This document shows positions 14,650 to 22,518 of a stretch of DNA of 45,584 nucleotides, piece after piece. Source of the DNA: Candidatus Dojkabacteria bacterium (GTDB taxonomy: Bacteria; Patescibacteriota; Dojkabacteria; SC72; WJKH01); the NCBI GenBank assembly GCA_014729235.1, contig WJKH01000047.1, forward strand, positions 1-45,584. The letters run 5' to 3'. A program made the position numbers and the translations under genes. The notes under the pieces are model-generated. The model was not told the DNA's origin. It saw nothing but the letters and a program-made list of their open reading frames with translations, and made no database searches. Within the stretch, counting starts at the first letter, position 1; every line of letters starts with the position of its first letter.

Positions 14650-15144
14650 ATGGCAGATACAAAAAAGGCAGAGAAGAAGGAAGAGAAAAAAGAAGAGAAA
14701 GCTCCAAAAGCTGAAGAAAGCTCAAAGGAAGAAACCTCAAAAGAGGACTCCAAAGATCTCCCTGAACTCTCAAAAAATGCAGAGAAAGTACTGGAAGTTG
14801 TTGAAAAGATGACAGTACTGGAACTTGCAGACCTCGTCAAAGTGATGGAGGAAAAGTTCGGAGTAAGCGCCGCAGCTCCAGTAGCTATGGCAGCAGCCCC
14901 TGCAGCAGGCGGAGGTGAAGAAGAGGAAGAGAAATCAAGCTTCACTATTGTCCTTAAAGAGGCAGGCGCTCAGAAGATCCCTGTTATCAAAGCTGTTCGT
15001 GAAATCACCGAGCTGGGACTCAAAGAGGCTAAGGATCTTGTAGAAGGTGCTCCAAAAGAGGTTAAAGCTGACGTTCCAAAAGAGGAAGCAGAAGAAATCA
15101 AAGCAAAACTTGAGGAAGTAGGTGCAACTGTTGAGCTTCAATAG
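14650..15144 (+). CDS. rplL: 50S ribosomal protein L7/L12 with charged N-terminal extension
   Basis: [28 protein letters not shown]...[27 protein letters not shown]. Confidence 0.97.
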
Positions 15145-15270
15145 CTTTAGCTTTTAAATCAAACGAGCCAAGGTACACAAAGCCCATTGGATTTGTGATA
15201 CTTGAGTAAGAGCTGATATCAAACTAGCGAGAATACAAAAGCTGTTTGAATGCCTAATCCTGAGAATTTA

Positions 15271-15303
15271 AAATGCGGATAACAAAAGTTTATCCGCATT
15301 TTT
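15271..15303 (+). terminator. Rho-independent terminator downstream of rplL
   Basis: 12-bp stem AAATGCGGATAA/TTATCCGCATTT followed by T run. Confidence 0.85.
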
Positions 15304-15314
15304 GCAGAAAAACG

Positions 15315-15323
15315 TGGTATAAT
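15315..15323 (+). promoter_or_regulatory. Extended -10 promoter of ATP-grasp operon
   Basis: TGGTATAAT, about 70 nt before ORF 15391. Confidence 0.5.
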
Positions 15324-15390
15324 ATACTATATTACTAATGCAAAACTGCCATGCAAAAGAATACCTCCCGAGCAGCTATCTAAGTTCTTA

Positions 15391-16065
15391 ATGTATACTC
15401 AGATGATCTTACCAAATCTTCCGCACGGAATAATTGTATTACTCTTATTTCTCCCGGTAATAGCGACAATTGCGAATTTCGCAAGATACGTACTTGGAAT
15501 TAGAACCCTAGGTATATACCCTGCCCTTTCACTTGCATTTGCCTTTTTACTCACCGGATTTCGATACGGAATGATAATCACTACCCTGGTCTTCGCAATA
15601 TCTTCACTAAGCTACTCGCTGATCAAATACACCAGAATGCATTACGTCTCCAAAATTACAGTTATCTACACGGCAAATGCTATTTTTTTAATCCTTGCAT
15701 TTACTTTATTCACCCAGGCCCCGTTTTTTAGCAATGTTCTAAATCTTGACTTTAACGAGATTAACCCAGCTGGTGTTTTATTAATCGCTGTCCTCATAGA
15801 CTTTTTTGTGAAACAGACAGTAAAAAAAGATTGGTTCACAGCAACCAGATCATTCATTGAGACGATTATAGTATCTTCAATTGGTTTCTTAATCATTCGT
15901 ATTCCCCGATTTGACCTGATCCTGGTAAAATATGCCTGGATTATCCCCTTATTAATAATTGTGAATGTCATTATTGGCCAGGGAAGCAACCTTAAGCTTC
16001 TTGAAATTCTCAGATTCAAGCAAATTATTGTTAAACCAAATCCACAGGATGACAAATCTTCTTAA
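15391..16065 (+). CDS. 7TM membrane protein, like the 7TM domain normally fused to an inactive transglutaminase
   Basis: RYVLGIRTLGIYPALSLAFAFLLTGFRYG plus six further hydrophobic helices. Confidence 0.7.
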   Translation: MYTQMILPNLPHGIIVLLLFLPVIATIANFARYVLGIRTLGIYPALSLAFAFLLTGFRYGMIITTLVFAISSLSYSLIKYTRMHYVSKITVIYTANAIFLILAFTLFTQAPFFSNVLNLDFNEINPAGVLLIAVLIDFFVKQTVKKDWFTATRSFIETIIVSSIGFLIIRIPRFDLILVKYAWIIPLLIIVNVIIGQGSNLKLLEILRFKQIIVKPNPQDDKSS

Positions 16066-17539
16066 AAATCTCGCAACAACAGAAGTTTTAGGTATCAACC
16101 GAAGAAATCAGGACTATCTTCGTCCACTGAATTCGCCCTCAGCAAAGAAAATTGCTGACAGCAAACTACTTACCAAGCGGATTCTTCGACGCTCAAACAT
16201 CCAGACACCGGAATTATTCAAAGTAATTCGGACTGAAAAGCAGTTAAAATACGTAGACTGGTCAAGTCTACCCAAAAGTTTTGTTATCAAACCAAATCAG
16301 GGGTCACGAGGGAGAGGCATTTTGATCGTCTATGGGAAGAAAAAAGGAAGCGAACAAGCCTGGATCCAATCCAACAACCAAATTGTCAGAATTAAAGACT
16401 TTGAATCGCATATTATGCAAATTTTCGAAGGTCGATTTTCACTTGGAAGCAGAAGAGATATCGCTCTAATTGAAGAAAGATTAAAAACCGACAAACTACT
16501 GAAGAAATACAGCTACAAAGGAGTTCCTGATATACGCATAATTGTATACAACAGCATCCCTTTGATGGCTATGACAAGGCTCCCCACCAAGGAATCAAAC
16601 GGAAAAGCAAACCTGCATGCCGGAGCAATCTGTGTAGGTATCGACATTGGAAGCGGCATCACTATTAACGGAATTCACCTAAAAAGCAAATCACTATTGT
16701 CGGATACATACGAGCCAATTGAAATGACATACGATCAAAAAATCAACCTCCCGATAAAAGGTATTGAAATTCCAAATTGGGATGAGATCCTGGAAATTGC
16801 CGTTAAATGCCAGCGAGAAAGCGGTCTTGGATATGCAGGTGTAGATATTGCAATTGACAGAGATAAAGGCCCAATGGTATTTGAGCTAAATGCCCGCCCG
16901 GGACTTGGAATTCAGGTGACGAATAACGCTGGACTCAGGTTTAGGCTTGAACGTGTAGCTGGAATTAAAGTAAAAAACACCAAGCATGCAGTGCGTATAG
17001 CAAAAAACCTATTTGGAGGAAGCGTAAGTGAGGAAATTGAGCTATTGAGTGGTCGGCAGATTGCCAATTTAGTCGAGAAAATTACTCTTTTTGAAAAAGG
17101 GAAATACAAAGTCAAGAGAAAACGAAAAAAATTAAAGCAAGGCACACTTCTAGTCAAAGGCCTCCTCGACACTGGCCTTCTAACTTCACGTATCGATCGT
17201 GATACCGCAGCAAAACTGGGATTTATCGATGCTATTAAATCTTTCAACTCCTATGAAATTCCCAAAGTTTTTAACTCGTTTGAAGAAGCCCAGGCCTACA
17301 TAGATAAGATGGATAACACAATCTCAAAACACGAAGATATCGTTCGATTGGCAAAAATTACAGAGGAAGGGAAAATAAGAGTAAGACCCGTGATCAGTGT
17401 TAACTTGCTTATTAAGGGAATTCACAAGAATATCGAGGTTATAATTAGTACAAGAAAGGAGTTAATCTACCCTATCCTGATAGGGCGTAGAGAATTAAAA
17501 GACTTTCTTATCGATGCAAGTAAAACTTTTACCCGATAA
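16049..17539 (+). CDS. RimK-related (alpha-L-glutamate ligase-like) ATP-grasp ligase fused to C-terminal RimB-like retropepsin domain
   Basis: VLGINRRNQDYL, FVIKPNQGSRGRGI, GVPDIRIIVYNSIPLMAMTRLPTKESNGKANLHAGA, FELNARPGLGIQ; C-term LLDTGLLTSRIDRDTAAKLG and PILIGRRELKDFLID. The ORF track starts at 15965; ATG 16049 preferred. Confidence 0.85.
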   Translation: MTNLLKNLATTEVLGINRRNQDYLRPLNSPSAKKIADSKLLTKRILRRSNIQTPELFKVIRTEKQLKYVDWSSLPKSFVIKPNQGSRGRGILIVYGKKKGSEQAWIQSNNQIVRIKDFESHIMQIFEGRFSLGSRRDIALIEERLKTDKLLKKYSYKGVPDIRIIVYNSIPLMAMTRLPTKESNGKANLHAGAICVGIDIGSGITINGIHLKSKSLLSDTYEPIEMTYDQKINLPIKGIEIPNWDEILEIAVKCQRESGLGYAGVDIAIDRDKGPMVFELNARPGLGIQVTNNAGLRFRLERVAGIKVKNTKHAVRIAKNLFGGSVSEEIELLSGRQIANLVEKITLFEKGKYKVKRKRKKLKQGTLLVKGLLDTGLLTSRIDRDTAAKLGFIDAIKSFNSYEIPKVFNSFEEAQAYIDKMDNTISKHEDIVRLAKITEEGKIRVRPVISVNLLIKGIHKNIEVIISTRKELIYPILIGRRELKDFLIDASKTFTR

Positions 17540-17577
17540 AAAAAGCATCGATATCTAACTTTTTAGTCTAAAAAAGC

Positions 17578-18564
17578 TTGAAATCAAAAAAGCAATCAAA
17601 AAATTATCTAAAAATCGCCGGCAACATACATCTTTCATATTACGTCGAAGCAGCTGATATCCTCGGTATAGACTACAAAATTTTTGTACGATCTCTCATG
17701 GCACGATTCGAGGCCAACGGAAAGCATTGGTTTATAATTAATACAGTCAATCCTCTAATTAATTCCCCAAGCGCAACAATTGCCAAGAGAAAATACCTCA
17801 CTAATATGGTGTTGGAAGAAGCGGGAGTTCCGGTTCCCAAGCAAAATAAGCTTTCCAGTATTGAAGATGCTCTTGAATTCTATAATAAATTCCAAGTCAT
17901 TGTCATAAAACCAGCACAAGGCCTAGGTGGAAAAGGCGTCACAATCCTGCCTGAGGACGAAAATGCAGTAAGAAAAGCTTACCGGGCAGCATTAGAAAAT
18001 AACAAAAGCAAGACAAGCACAAAGATCCTAGGTGAAGAGTTTATACCAGGCAACCACTATCGCCTACTGGTCCTGGGAAATCACGTAATCGGGGCCGTTA
18101 GAAGAGTTCCTGCGGATGTTTCCGGAGACGGTGTGCATACAATCTCTGAACTAATCAAGCTAGAAAATAAAAAACGTAAAGAAAGACTTTTAAAGCCAAT
18201 ACCTGTTGACGATCAGACTCATAAAAAGCTAAATAGACAAAACCTCACACTTGACTCCGTACTTCCAAAGGATCAGCGAGTAGAAATTCGATTCCATGCA
18301 AATCTCACGACCGGAGGATCAACAGAGGAATGCGCTGAAGAAATGCATAAGTTTTATGAAGAAACTGCCGTAAATGCAGTAAAAGCAACCGGCATGAAAT
18401 TTGGCGGCGTCGACTTGATCACCCCGGACATTTCAAAGCCGGCCAGATGCGCTATAAATGAAGTTAATTACAATCCGGGACTCAGGCCACATTACAAAGT
18501 TGATCGAGGCAAAATTGTAAAAGTTGCCGTACCGGTCATGAAGTATATTCGAGACAATTTCTAA
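17578..18564 (+). CDS. ATP-grasp ligase related to the cyanophycin synthetase ATP-grasp module (TTG start)
   Basis: VIKPAQGLGGKGVTI; KFGGVDLITPDISKPARCAINEVNYNPGLRPHY. Confidence 0.8.
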   Translation: MKSKKQSKNYLKIAGNIHLSYYVEAADILGIDYKIFVRSLMARFEANGKHWFIINTVNPLINSPSATIAKRKYLTNMVLEEAGVPVPKQNKLSSIEDALEFYNKFQVIVIKPAQGLGGKGVTILPEDENAVRKAYRAALENNKSKTSTKILGEEFIPGNHYRLLVLGNHVIGAVRRVPADVSGDGVHTISELIKLENKKRKERLLKPIPVDDQTHKKLNRQNLTLDSVLPKDQRVEIRFHANLTTGGSTEECAEEMHKFYEETAVNAVKATGMKFGGVDLITPDISKPARCAINEVNYNPGLRPHYKVDRGKIVKVAVPVMKYIRDNF

Positions 18565-18586
18565 ATAATTTTTTACCCAACGCCAT

Positions 18587-20284
18587 ATGAAAGTCCAGGT
18601 TTTACAAGGTTTAAATCTCCAATCCCAAATCACCACAACAATAATTGAGTTTGATACAAAGCCAAGTGAACATGTAATCTCGATACTTGAACAAATTCGC
18701 GACTACCACCCTATATTTATGACCAAGTATGAAGCAACGGATAACAGCGTATACATTGAATCCAAATTACCGCACCTGTGGAAAGTAGTAGCACCAGTTC
18801 TGAACGAATTGACTACAGAAAAAATTACCCGTGAAGAAGCCGAAGATTTCATACTCACAAAAGCAATAAAATACCAGGTGTTATCAATGTCAACCATTCC
18901 GCTACTACACACCGCTCATGAACTGGGATATGAAACTACACAATTTTTTATAAGAGAGGGTCTCAAACCAAAGCCTGGATCTCTGTACAATCGGTACTAC
19001 ACAATAGGAGTCGGAAGAGGCAGCCAAATTACGGTATCGATAGCCTCCAGTCGAGATGCATATATCTCTCAAAAAACCCAGAAAGACAAGTGGCTGACTA
19101 ATACAGTAATCCCAAGACTCGGCCTACCAATAGCAAAATGGCAGGTTGTAGAATCAAAAGAGGAACTAGCCGAAGTCTTCAAGGATTTTCCAAAACCCTT
19201 TGTGCTTAAGCCAACAGGATTAGTGGGAGGTCATGGAGTAAGCATTAACATTGACACAATTGAAAAAGCTTTTCGAGCTTATGATGCCGCTGAAGCCAGC
19301 ATAAACAGAAAAGACCGACCACTCTGGCAGCGAAAGATTATGATACAGGAACAAGTAGAAAGCCATGGCGGTGAGGACTATAGAATTCTTGTAATCGACG
19401 GGAAAATGGAAATTGCCACAAAACGTGTCCCGGCTTTTGTTATGGGCGATGGCGAACACTCAATAAAAGAACTGATAAATGAGATTAACAAGGACCCGAG
19501 AAGAGATATTAAAAATCCAACGCACACCATGAAACCGATAGTGATCGACGAAATGATGCATGACTATCTCGGAGATAACAATTTAACGGTAGAGTACGTA
19601 CCTCAGAAAGATGAAAAAGTCAGAGTAAGACTACCTGCAAGTATGAGTCAGGGAGGCGTTACGCAGGACGTTACCGATCAAGTTCACCCGCAAATCAAAG
19701 CTGTTGTAGAATCTCTAGCCGCCTCTATTCATGCTTATACACTTGGCGTAGATGTAATGTGCCTGGATATCACAAAGCCACTGACACGGGAAAATGGTTC
19801 TATTATTGAGATTAATACTATGCCTGAGGCGTATCTCAATTTATACCCTACTTATGGGAAAGAGTATGCCCATGTAATGAAGACTTATATTGAAAAGCTT
19901 ATGAGAGATAACAAATGTGCAAAGATTGTAATTGCAGGTGTTCAAGATTTAGATACAGTTGCTATAGATAAAATGGTCCGAGAAAAGAATAAGTTTCACA
20001 GTGATGAAAACGTGGGCGTCTATAAATCGGGAGCAATTTACATCAACAAAGAAACGATAAACTCAGAACTAGAGACTTGGGAAGCCATTCAAGCACTAAA
20101 AATAAACGCATCTCTAGATGCTATTGTTTTGGTATACGAGGACATCGAAGAAATTGAGCAATACGGATTTGGATTTGATAATGTTGATATGCTAATAACT
20201 GGGACAAATCTTACACCTGACTTCAGTCAAAAAATAAGCCAGTACTCCAGCGAAGGTCTCATCCAAGAAATAATTGAAGTATAA
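18587..20284 (+). CDS. Cyanophycin-synthetase-like ATP-grasp ligase with degenerate truncated Mur-ligase-like C-terminus
   Basis: FVLKPTGLVGGHGVSI, LGVDVMCLDITKPL...IIEINTMPEAYL; C-term NVGVYKSGAIYINKETI...QYGFGFDNVDMLITGTNLT. Confidence 0.75.
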   Translation: MKVQVLQGLNLQSQITTTIIEFDTKPSEHVISILEQIRDYHPIFMTKYEATDNSVYIESKLPHLWKVVAPVLNELTTEKITREEAEDFILTKAIKYQVLSMSTIPLLHTAHELGYETTQFFIREGLKPKPGSLYNRYYTIGVGRGSQITVSIASSRDAYISQKTQKDKWLTNTVIPRLGLPIAKWQVVESKEELAEVFKDFPKPFVLKPTGLVGGHGVSINIDTIEKAFRAYDAAEASINRKDRPLWQRKIMIQEQVESHGGEDYRILVIDGKMEIATKRVPAFVMGDGEHSIKELINEINKDPRRDIKNPTHTMKPIVIDEMMHDYLGDNNLTVEYVPQKDEKVRVRLPASMSQGGVTQDVTDQVHPQIKAVVESLAASIHAYTLGVDVMCLDITKPLTRENGSIIEINTMPEAYLNLYPTYGKEYAHVMKTYIEKLMRDNKCAKIVIAGVQDLDTVAIDKMVREKNKFHSDENVGVYKSGAIYINKETINSELETWEAIQALKINASLDAIVLVYEDIEEIEQYGFGFDNVDMLITGTNLTPDFSQKISQYSSEGLIQEIIEV

Positions 20285-20317
20285 CCTGCTGAAAATTAAA
20301 ATGTCATTCAGGAGAAT

Positions 20318-21271
20318 ATGAATAGCCCGAAAAAATACCTAATTATTGATAAGCATCAGCGAATTCAACTTAAAACTGAGCATACATATGCCGTCAGACG
20401 CCTATTTGAAGAGATTAGCGAGGCAGGAAATACTGCTGATTTTGCATATTACGATCAGTTGGAAATAATTTACTCAGACTCTTCAATCCAAGTTAAGGCA
20501 AACAATGTCGATGTTTCACAGTATGATTTCATTGTTTTCAGAGGCCACAGGCTCGACAACGATCGCCGGTATCAAATACGAAGAATGCTAATTGATTACA
20601 TTGATTTATCAAATTCGGCTGCAGCACAAAAAACACATGTTCAAAACTCAGAGTCGATTAAGCTTCTACCCTACTACAACAAGATTTATCTCGCGACGTT
20701 CTGTGCACAAAACAACCTGCCATACTTTAAAACTTACTTCCGCCTTGATGGTGATTATGAAAACCACCAAGGACCAATTGCCAATTTTCCTATGATTGCG
20801 AAAGAATATGCCGGAGCAAATGATCTTCATCAAATCGATGGAAAACTAAAGGTTAAGAAAAATGTATTTAAAATTGACTCACCGAAAGAGTTTAATCAGA
20901 AACACTTGAAAGATCAAGACTTGGCAAATTTCTTTATTCAAGAGTTTTCACCTGCCGGCGAAGACTTCAGAATCTTTATCGCAAACGGAAAAGTAGTAGG
21001 CGGCTGGAAACGAGAGTCAAATAACAGTTTTATGACTGTAAGAAAAGGGATTTATTCGGGTTACAATCAACCTGATGATGATATGGCCAAATTAGCCATG
21101 AAAACTTCGACAGCTCTAGAAGCTAATTTTATTGCAGTTGATATCATGAGAAAAGCAGATGGCAAGCCTTATATACAGGAAATCAGCCTAAATCCAGGAT
21201 TCAAAGCTTATGAAACAAAGATATCGGGAAACAATGTCAATCTGGCTGAGATTATTGTGAATTCATTTTAA
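20318..21271 (+). CDS. RimK-type ATP-grasp ligase
   Basis: MIAKEYAGANDL, FIQEFSPAGEDFRIFIANGKVVGGWKRES, FIAVDIMRKADGKPYIQEISLNPGFKAYE. Confidence 0.85.
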   Translation: MNSPKKYLIIDKHQRIQLKTEHTYAVRRLFEEISEAGNTADFAYYDQLEIIYSDSSIQVKANNVDVSQYDFIVFRGHRLDNDRRYQIRRMLIDYIDLSNSAAAQKTHVQNSESIKLLPYYNKIYLATFCAQNNLPYFKTYFRLDGDYENHQGPIANFPMIAKEYAGANDLHQIDGKLKVKKNVFKIDSPKEFNQKHLKDQDLANFFIQEFSPAGEDFRIFIANGKVVGGWKRESNNSFMTVRKGIYSGYNQPDDDMAKLAMKTSTALEANFIAVDIMRKADGKPYIQEISLNPGFKAYETKISGNNVNLAEIIVNSF

Positions 21272-21339
21272 AGCTATCCCCACACAATCAAACGGATTTG
21301 AAAAACCGCGGGGTAAAAGCCAGGCACTGCTTAATCCTA

Positions 21340-22518
21340 TTAACCGCCGATCTGCTTGAAAACTTTTCTAAAAGCTTCTTTGCTTGGAACATACTTAGGC
21401 TTTTTGATAAGACCCTCCTCAACCCATTTCGTTTGTTTAAAATCAATTTTCCCTGCGTATAATAGCTCGTACATGTAAGGTTTCCGTTCCATCATCCGCC
21501 TCACACGTCTAAACCCCCTGAAGTAAGCATAATCTCTTGGATAAATTCCGGGTTTTGACGTATCTCCAAGTCCCCTCTTGACCCTCAATACGAGATTGAA
21601 TGAAGTTTTTGGAGGTAAAGCAACTGAAAGAGCATTGTATAAGTCACGAAAACTCATAGTCTGCCCAATTTGAATCAACCAAACTAGCAAAGCACGCTCA
21701 CGGAGATGTGAAAATCTTAGATACCCCATCATTTCTTCGTTATACATTGCTAAACCCTCTTCAATATTGAGATAAGTATTGACATTTGGTTTCGACAAAG
21801 CATGATAACCCGTTTCCAGACCATTTAAATGACGGAAGACATGAGTTCCAATCTCATGAACGATCGTTTTTTTCAAATCACTCGGTCGCTTCCGAATATT
21901 CGGGTCAACAAAGACAGACTTTTTCTTTAAACCCATTTTCACGCCATTACTTCTGATCTTCTTTGACTTCGCCAATTTCCAATCGTCCAAACCAAAAGCC
22001 TGGAATGATTTCTCAAAAACGTCTTTAATCTCTTTAAAACCAAGATACTCTTCATTTTTAACCTTCTCTGAGTTTGCTAAATTATAACTGCGCCCATGCG
22101 TCCGGATAGCTATGCAGGCATTTCGAAATAATTTATACGATGGCATTCCGAATTTATCAATAGCAATCTCTGTAAACCGCTTGTTATCACCAACAGCCGT
22201 CATTAATTCGTGTGTCTGAATTTTATCTCTGATCAACTCAACATAAAAATCTGAAATCCTTGGATCAACATCTGAAATCTCCCCAACATCCTTTATACTT
22301 TCAATTATCTCGTTATTTGAATTTTTAACTATCTCATACTTAAATTGAGGATTACATGTACTCGCCTCAAGGAACTTCTTCTTCTCTGAGGCCAGATTTA
22401 CCGGAGTAAAAACTAAACTCAATGGAAGCCGAAGTTTGTTCAAATGCCTCGTAACTTTCTCTAAAGTCATAGACTTGCTGTTCACTGTTTTTGCTTTTTT
22501 ATTCTTGATTCCAAACAT
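21340..22518 (-). CDS. DUF1704 / MATCAP-like metallopeptidase
   Basis: HEIGTHVFRHLNG (HExxxH) and NIEEGLAMYNEEMMGYL (QEGLA-type motif). Confidence 0.85.
   Translation of the reverse strand: MFGIKNKKAKTVNSKSMTLEKVTRHLNKLRLPLSLVFTPVNLASEKKKFLEASTCNPQFKYEIVKNSNNEIIESIKDVGEISDVDPRISDFYVELIRDKIQTHELMTAVGDNKRFTEIAIDKFGMPSYKLFRNACIAIRTHGRSYNLANSEKVKNEEYLGFKEIKDVFEKSFQAFGLDDWKLAKSKKIRSNGVKMGLKKKSVFVDPNIRKRPSDLKKTIVHEIGTHVFRHLNGLETGYHALSKPNVNTYLNIEEGLAMYNEEMMGYLRFSHLRERALLVWLIQIGQTMSFRDLYNALSVALPPKTSFNLVLRVKRGLGDTSKPGIYPRDYAYFRGFRRVRRMMERKPYMYELLYAGKIDFKQTKWVEEGLIKKPKYVPSKEAFRKVFKQIGG

What the first reader, a model, noticed from the sequence alone, without database searches (positions are those of the whole stretch)
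15318..22518. Candidate uncharacterised peptide-ligase/peptidase system: 7TM + four ATP-grasps + retropepsin + MATCAP-like metallopeptidase
Seen: ORFs 15391, 16049, 17578, 18587 and 20318 are tightly packed (17-nt overlap, then gaps of 38, 22 and 33 nt) behind their own extended -10 promoter and the rplL terminator, with a convergent HExxxH metallopeptidase. Known: RimK-type ATP-grasps add amino acids to protein or peptide C-termini, RimB-like retropepsins accompany them, and CphA-type ATP-grasps make amino-acid polymers; related 7TM/RimK/RimB neighbourhoods have been described in other bacteria. Inference: four ligases plus two peptidases in one locus of an apparently reduced genome suggests a dedicated reversible tagging or polymer system with unknown substrate. 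I know no description of this exact composition.
Basis: partly seen in the sequence, partly recalled or inferred. Interest (0 to 1): 0.9.

Follow-up and report, generated by a model that had tools for sequence, protein, structure and literature searches.

The report
Bacterial amino-acid tagging-and-trimming operon
A tiny-genome bacterium (Candidatus Dojkabacteria) carries a conserved operon of a membrane protein, four enzymes that stick amino acids onto something and two that probably cut them off again; its core is a relative of the osmotic-stress (rlo) genes of Pseudomonas, and in many related bacteria the same ligase is physically fused to a relative of the enzyme that trims tubulin tails in our own cells.

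Summary
The window is from Ca. Dojkabacteria (Patescibacteria). It holds a 7TM protein (PF14402), an RloC-type ATP-grasp fused to a RimB/RloA-type retropepsin, a CphA1-like ATP-grasp, a full-length CphA2-like protein, a RimK-like ATP-grasp and a convergent MATCAP metallopeptidase. The set is syntenic across the order (o4 in 36 of 40 genomes). Its core is related to the rloABC operon of Pseudomonas, so the kind is known. New here: (1) in Patescibacteria the retropepsin is fused to the ligase; (2) MATCAP belongs to the module: of 106 RloC-type proteins, 28 are fused to it and 27 have it within 8 kb; (3) the retropepsin D[T/S]G is intact in 46 of 46 MATCAP-free cases but broken in 24-25 of 28 fusions and 7 of 32 other MATCAP-bearing cases, in about five lineages, while MATCAP keeps its zinc motif in 59 of 59. 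This suggests that MATCAP can replace the retropepsin. RloA/RimB cleave poly-glutamate and eukaryotic MATCAP/TMCP trims polyglutamate from tubulin, so the best reading is a membrane-tethered, reversible (poly)glutamyl ligation system, with extra ligases in Dojkabacteria. Substrate and amino acid are unproven. Classical cyanophycin metabolism is not supported.

The parts
15270..15303 (+). terminator-like hairpin behind rplL (ATGCGGATAA / TTATCCGCAT stem, 7-nt loop, T run)
   Evidence: read from sequence, (not listed by the scan)
15315..15323 (+). extended -10 promoter element TGG-TATAAT before the operon
   Evidence: read from sequence; consensus match only
15391..16065 (+). o1: 7TM membrane protein, RloB-like but lacking the inactive transglutaminase domain
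   Evidence: PF14402 E 4.4e-7 over cut-off; RloB model NF052267 matched over 314-506 only; 7TM immediately upstream of the RloC-type ATP-grasp in 95 of 106 loci
16049..17539 (+). o2: RloC-type ATP-grasp ligase (residues about 1-340) fused to a RimB/RloA-type retropepsin (about 366-496, catalytic DTG at residues 374-376, nt 17168-17176)
   Evidence: TIGR02291 3e-85, PF14397 7e-65, PF05618 2e-7, RloA3 model 4e-8; RloA structures 9g58/9g59 and 2pma by sequence; AlphaFold mean pLDDT 82; PDB fold matches led by ArgX/RimK; DTG position
17578..18564 (+). o3: stand-alone cyanophycin-synthetase/GshF-type ATP-grasp ligase with CphA1-like substrate residues (N242, R303)
18587..20284 (+). o4: CphA2-like protein: N domain, ATP-grasp G domain, degenerate Mur-ligase domain without P-loop
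   Evidence: best fold match CphA2 7ta5, E 1e-38, TMq 0.71 over full length; sequence matches to 8fxh/7lg5; residue table
20318..21271 (+). o5: RimK-like ATP-grasp ligase
   Evidence: PF08443 4e-11; RimK structures by profile, 2e-8
21340..22518 (-). o6: MATCAP-family zinc metallopeptidase (HEIGTH + EEGL)
   Evidence: PF08014 2e-30; PDB KIAA0895L 7z5g 1e-11; motif

Best explanation
The locus encodes a Patescibacterial variant of the Rlo system: a membrane-tethered writer/eraser for acidic amino-acid (most likely glutamyl) chains. o1 (7TM) holds the o2 ligase at the cytoplasmic face of the membrane; o2 adds amino acids to a carboxyl group of a protein or peptide; its fused retropepsin and the separate MATCAP carboxypeptidase remove them. 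In Dojkabacteria three further ligases (o3 CphA1-G-like, o4 CphA2-like, o5 RimK-like) extend, branch or polymerise the chain. By analogy with P. aeruginosa rloABC the output is envelope/osmotic homeostasis. Shown here: domain content, conservation, fusions, active-site states. Inferred: glutamate as the amino acid, the direction of each reaction, membrane tethering, physiological role.
For: Order-wide synteny. RloC-type protein in 116 of 384 Patescibacteria at E<=1e-30, with the 7TM directly upstream in 95 of 106 loci examined, several of the rest at contig ends; a Halobacterium ORF that joins 7TM and RloC in one chain. The RloC-type ligase is followed by a retropepsin-like domain in nearly all, and is fused to MATCAP in 28. 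Retropepsin triad intact in 46/46 proteins from genomes without MATCAP, broken in 24-25 of 28 fusions and 7 of 32 other MATCAP-bearing cases, in about five lineages on the tree, while the HExxxH-type zinc motif is kept in 59/59 MATCAPs. RloA cleaves runs of 8 or more Glu, with D48A and D48N as inactive controls, and rloB/rloC deletion rescues the rloA triple mutant (PMC12239564); TMCP/MATCAP shortens polyglutamate on tubulin (PMC10499314). Both hydrolase kinds therefore share polyglutamate as a known substrate type. ATP-grasp Lys and Glu residues are invariant in all four ligases.
Against: Neither substrate nor amino acid is tested. In P. aeruginosa RloA is secreted, whereas the fused retropepsin has no export signal, so the compartment differs. 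One of the two arginines that bind poly-Glu in RloA (R137 equivalent, by my mapping) is missing in most of the Dojkabacteria order although the window keeps it. The independent-pairs test of MATCAP presence against triad loss goes one way only (2-4 versus 0) but is not significant (p 0.125-0.5). o5 has Ser instead of the second metal-binding Asn in most rows. Two near-complete genomes of the order (G019, G020) lack the system.
Confidence: 0.55

Rival explanations
1. Cyanophycin-like storage polymer: o3 makes or adds the unit, o4 polymerises it like CphA2, and the peptidases mobilise it.
For: o4 matches CphA2 over its full length, with Tyr at the CphA1 Arg458 position as in CphA2 8fxh (7ta5 has Phe) and no Mur P-loop; o3 keeps CphA1-like Asn394 and Arg458 equivalents.
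Against: No full-length CphA1 was seen among the order's hits; cyanophycinase-superfamily PF03575 in only 13 of 40 order genomes; the Asp-binding Asn394 is an invariant Ser in o4; storage does not explain the 7TM-RloC core or its conservation without o3/o4.
Confidence: 0.13
2. Biosynthesis of a secreted or surface peptide metabolite or envelope peptide (teichuronopeptide-like), with the 7TM as exporter or scaffold.
For: Several ligases in tandem fit stepwise peptide assembly; glycosyltransferase, Wzy-like or acyltransferase genes are inserted in or flank some copies; MreB is next door in most.
Against: I saw no precursor peptide or transporter gene; two hydrolase types tied to the ligase fit reversible modification better; insertions are lineage-specific.
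Confidence: 0.15
3. Two unrelated functions share an operon: an Rlo-type module (o1, o2, o6) and a separate CphA-like ligase module (o3-o5).
For: In many Patescibacteria the Rlo core occurs without o3/o4-like genes nearby; in two Dojkabacteria o3 and o4 lie apart (L047, L048/L049).
Against: Tight spacing and order-wide synteny; tandem CphA- or RimK-type ATP-grasps recur next to the Rlo core in other families (L110, L111, L114, L149, L156, L187).
Confidence: 0.12
4. RimK/RimB-like modification of ribosomal protein bS6.
For: RimK- and RimB-type domains; ribosomal operon next door.
Against: Readable bS6 C-termini of the order mostly end in KKKEIEI-like, not Glu-rich, tails; the first ligase is RloC-type (TIGR02291), not RimK; a 7TM partner is present almost always.
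Confidence: 0.05

Closest known systems
rloABC operon of Pseudomonas aeruginosa (PMC12239564); copy seen here in Legionella adelaidensis plasmid NZ_LR134414
   Same: 7TM (RloB), RloC-type ATP-grasp and RimB-like retropepsin in one operon
   Different: Here the retropepsin is fused to the ligase without an export signal, RloB lacks the transglutaminase domain, and three more ATP-grasps and MATCAP are added
RimB/RimK of Pseudomonas
   Same: ATP-grasp ligase paired with a cytosolic retropepsin
   Different: Ligase belongs to TIGR02291 rather than RimK; 7TM partner; bS6 tails of the order are not glutamate-rich
Cyanophycin synthetase 2 (CphA2; PDB 7ta5, 8fxh)
   Same: o4 has the N domain, ATP-grasp and degenerate Mur domain, and Tyr at the Arg458 position
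   Different: Asn394 is Ser; no CphA1 or consistently present cyanophycinase
MATCAP/TMCP tubulin carboxypeptidases
   Same: HExxxH metallopeptidase acting opposite a ligase of the wider ATP-grasp kind (TTL/TTLL in eukaryotes, RloC here; general knowledge); TMCPs remove polyglutamate
   Different: Bacterial, often fused to the ligase; substrate unknown; low sequence identity
Iyer et al. 2009 amidoligase neighbourhoods (not held; memory only)
   Same: predicted 7TM/transglutaminase/ATP-grasp/retropepsin neighbourhoods
   Different: I could not check whether the MATCAP link or the four-ligase form was noted there

Membership tests
Rlo system | RloC-type ATP-grasp (TIGR02291) | tested here: inconclusive
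   E 3e-85 over the full domain, but 286 bits is below the 314-bit curated cut-off
Rlo system | 7TM protein of the RloB family next to it | tested here: met
   PF14402 over cut-off; adjacency 95 of 106
Rlo system | inactive transglutaminase domain in RloB | tested here: not met
   224 aa, only the 7TM part matches; proteins of about 500 aa in other Patescibacteria
Rlo system | secreted retropepsin with signal peptide | tested here: not met
   the domain is C-terminal in o2; Legionella RloA is a separate ORF with an apparent signal peptide
Rlo system | role in osmotic/envelope homeostasis | not testable with these tools
   needs genetics
RimB/RloA retropepsin | catalytic D[T/S]G | tested here: met
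   DTG in the window; Asn in three relatives of the order
RimB/RloA retropepsin | two Arg that bind poly-Glu (RloA R114, R137; mapped by me) | tested here: inconclusive
   both present in the window; the second lost in most of the order
CphA2 | N + ATP-grasp + degenerate Mur domain lacking the P-loop | tested here: met
   no Mur-ligase Pfam hit
CphA2 | cyanophycin context (CphA1, cyanophycinase) | tested here: not met
CphA2 | polymerises beta-Asp-Arg | not testable with these tools
   needs enzymology
MATCAP (PF08014) | family profile and zinc motif | tested here: met
   106 bits against a cut-off of 27; HEIGTH + EEGL
RimK | RimK-family ATP-grasp for o5 | tested here: inconclusive
   PF08443 over cut-off but TIGR00768 61 bits versus 143; Ser at the second metal-binding position

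The most novel reading that the evidence does not exclude
Bacterial MATCAPs are erasers of an RloC-type ATP-grasp writer: a membrane-tethered polyglutamyl (or other C-terminal amino-acid) code in bacteria, analogous to the tubulin TTL/TTLL-MATCAP code, in which MATCAP has replaced a retropepsin eraser several times, often by fusing to the writer.
Probability: 0.35. Interest if true: 0.82.

Novelty: new variant of a known kind. Interest (0 to 1): 0.63.

Why it matters
It places a poorly understood stress-tolerance operon of Gammaproteobacteria (rlo) at the core of a system widespread in Patescibacteria, and ties bacterial relatives of a tubulin-trimming enzyme to a specific ligase by gene fusion. 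The two alternating erasers both have polyglutamate as a known substrate type, which turns 'unknown substrate' into a direct biochemical test that can be run with soluble, single-chain writer-eraser proteins.

Tried and rejected
Anti-phage defence: no PADLOC match. bS6 as target: readable C-termini mostly not Glu-rich (some loci gave no readable bS6 frame). FtsZ as target: ordinary C-terminal motifs. Canonical cyanophycin pathway: no CphA1 seen, no consistent cyanophycinase-superfamily gene. RloC-type protein in another phylum: 0 of 300 genomes in the phylum of a Clostridiaceae locus at 1e-20, which says little since no positive control was in that set. Literature on a MATCAP/ATP-grasp link in bacteria: none found; Iyer 2009 not held. 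The fold search with o2 listed ATP-grasp chains only, so the retropepsin domain rests on sequence plus the model's local confidence. L049 was first mis-scored as intact because a later DTG matched; corrected by the stricter pattern. A suspected o2-o3 fusion in one genome proved to be two ORFs.

Full report
Identity of the window. Relatives found with the o4 alignment are named Candidatus Dojkabacteria / WS6 (a few only 'Patescibacteria' or 'bacterium'); the window is contig C35 of a 1.16-Mb draft, 94.7% complete.

Observation. All coordinates, the overlap and the gaps are right. A hairpin plus T-run (15270-15303) and TGG-TATAAT (15315-15323) precede o1. Consensus scans over the whole region do not exceed chance and did not list that hairpin, so the transcription unit is likely but not shown.

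Proteins. o1 is the 7TM part of RloB without its inactive transglutaminase domain. o2 joins an RloC-type ATP-grasp to a RimB/RloA-type retropepsin. o3 is a stand-alone ATP-grasp of the cyanophycin-synthetase/GshF kind. o4 matches CphA2 7ta5 over its whole length (E 1e-38, TM-score 0.71 to the query), with a Mur-ligase-like C-terminal domain that has lost the P-loop. o5 is RimK-like. o6 is MATCAP. In the order's alignments the nucleotide-binding lysines and a metal-binding Glu are invariant in all four ligases; o5 mostly has Ser for the second metal-binding Asn.

Conservation. o4 occurs in 36 of 40 relatives. The order rplJ-rplL-o1-o2-o3-o4-o5-(o6)-mreB is kept across the order, with lineage-specific insertions (an AAT-type acyltransferase, glycosyltransferase and hydrolase in one genus; glutamate dehydrogenase in the nearest relative; a histidine kinase in another) and a few breaks. 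G019 and G020, 94-95% complete, lack the system.

The wider system. An RloC-type protein occurs in 116 of 384 Patescibacteria genomes at E<=1e-30. Of 106 such proteins read in their neighbourhoods, 95 have the 7TM directly upstream on the same strand; several exceptions are at contig ends. The 7TM protein is short (<260 aa) in 40, medium in 17 and 400 aa or more in 38, so the transglutaminase part has come or gone. A Halobacterium plasmid ORF joins 7TM and RloC in one chain. In Legionella the classical rloA-rloB-rloC order is seen, with a separate retropepsin that begins with an apparent signal peptide. Extra ATP-grasps near the core vary from none to about four.

MATCAP. It is fused behind the RloC-type ligase in 28 proteins (two changes on the tree), lies within 8 kb in 27, elsewhere in the genome in 5, and was not found in the genome for 46. 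Between ligase and MATCAP a shrunken retropepsin remnant is usually recognisable. The retropepsin D[T/S]G is intact in 46 of 46 without MATCAP, in 22 of 27 with it nearby, 3 of 5 with it elsewhere, and 3-4 of 28 fusions. MATCAP keeps its HExxxH-type motif in all 59 copies (one copy has HExxH). An Arg that I map to RloA R137, one of the poly-Glu contacts, is matched in 40 of 46 MATCAP-free, 9 of 27 adjacent and 3 of 28 fused proteins (pattern count). On the tree MATCAP presence needs 12 changes and triad loss 8; losses fall in about five lineages, all MATCAP-bearing. The formal independent-pairs test goes one way (2-4 to 0) but has too few informative pairs (p 0.125-0.5). Replacement is therefore the best reading, not proven. 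MATCAP absence also depends on draft completeness.

Mechanism. RloA of P. aeruginosa cuts runs of eight or more Glu; D48A and D48N were its inactive controls; loss of rloB or rloC rescues the triple rloA mutant under hypo-osmotic stress (PMC12239564). TMCP1/2 (MATCAP family) shorten polyglutamate on tubulin (PMC10499314). Two unrelated folds that alternate next to the same ligase, both with polyglutamate as a documented substrate, point to a glutamyl chain made by RloC. The chain of inference is: domains and fusions (shown), hydrolase exchange (supported), Glu chain (inferred), envelope/osmotic role (inferred by analogy).

Extra ligases. Mapping CphA1 residues from PMC9427784 through the printed alignments and counting conservation: R309 and R323 are kept in both o3 and o4; Asn394 is Asn in o3 and Ser in o4; Arg458 is Arg in o3 (19 of 20) and Tyr in o4 (18 of 18), as in CphA2 8fxh (7ta5 has Phe). 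o3 may thus take an acidic amino acid and o4 a different, perhaps larger, unit such as o3's product. This is inference. PF03575 proteins occur in only 13 of 40 order genomes.

Verdict. The kind (Rlo) is known; the composition, ligase-hydrolase fusion and MATCAP exchange make it a new variant. Whether the MATCAP link was noticed by Iyer et al. 2009 could not be checked.

Noticed in passing
L236:4185-5939 (Halobacterium sp. DL1 plasmid): One unannotated 584-aa ORF joins the 7TM domain and an RloC-type ATP-grasp in a single chain, in an archaeon.
   Followed up: partly
L112:10090-12537 (G309), L158:7794-10133 and 26 further loci: RloC-type ATP-grasp, shrunken retropepsin and MATCAP fused in one protein of about 770-1030 aa, in several Patescibacteria families.
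   Followed up: yes
window 14650-15144: The rplL ORF is 164 aa against mostly 133-148 aa in relatives; it starts with a Lys/Glu-rich stretch.
   Followed up: no
L032:7898-12799 and L038:7551-12423: In one genus an AAT-type acyltransferase (PF03417), a glycosyltransferase and an alpha/beta hydrolase are inserted around o4.
   Followed up: partly
L047:9173-10417: A glutamate dehydrogenase gene lies between o3 and o4 in the nearest relative.
   Followed up: partly
L123:5104-6942: An N-formylglutamate amidohydrolase-domain protein sits in an RloB-RloC-MATCAP cluster of another family.
   Followed up: partly
L110:960-3635: An 891-aa ORF the size of a full cyanophycin synthetase directly follows an RloC-type protein in genome G149.
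   Followed up: no
genomes G019 and G020: Two near-complete genomes of the order lack o2, o4 and MATCAP, so the system is dispensable there.
   Followed up: partly
G000:C80:15540-16097 and G000:C14:5518-6138: The window's genome has a further RimK-like ATP-grasp and one PF03575 peptidase outside this locus.
   Followed up: no
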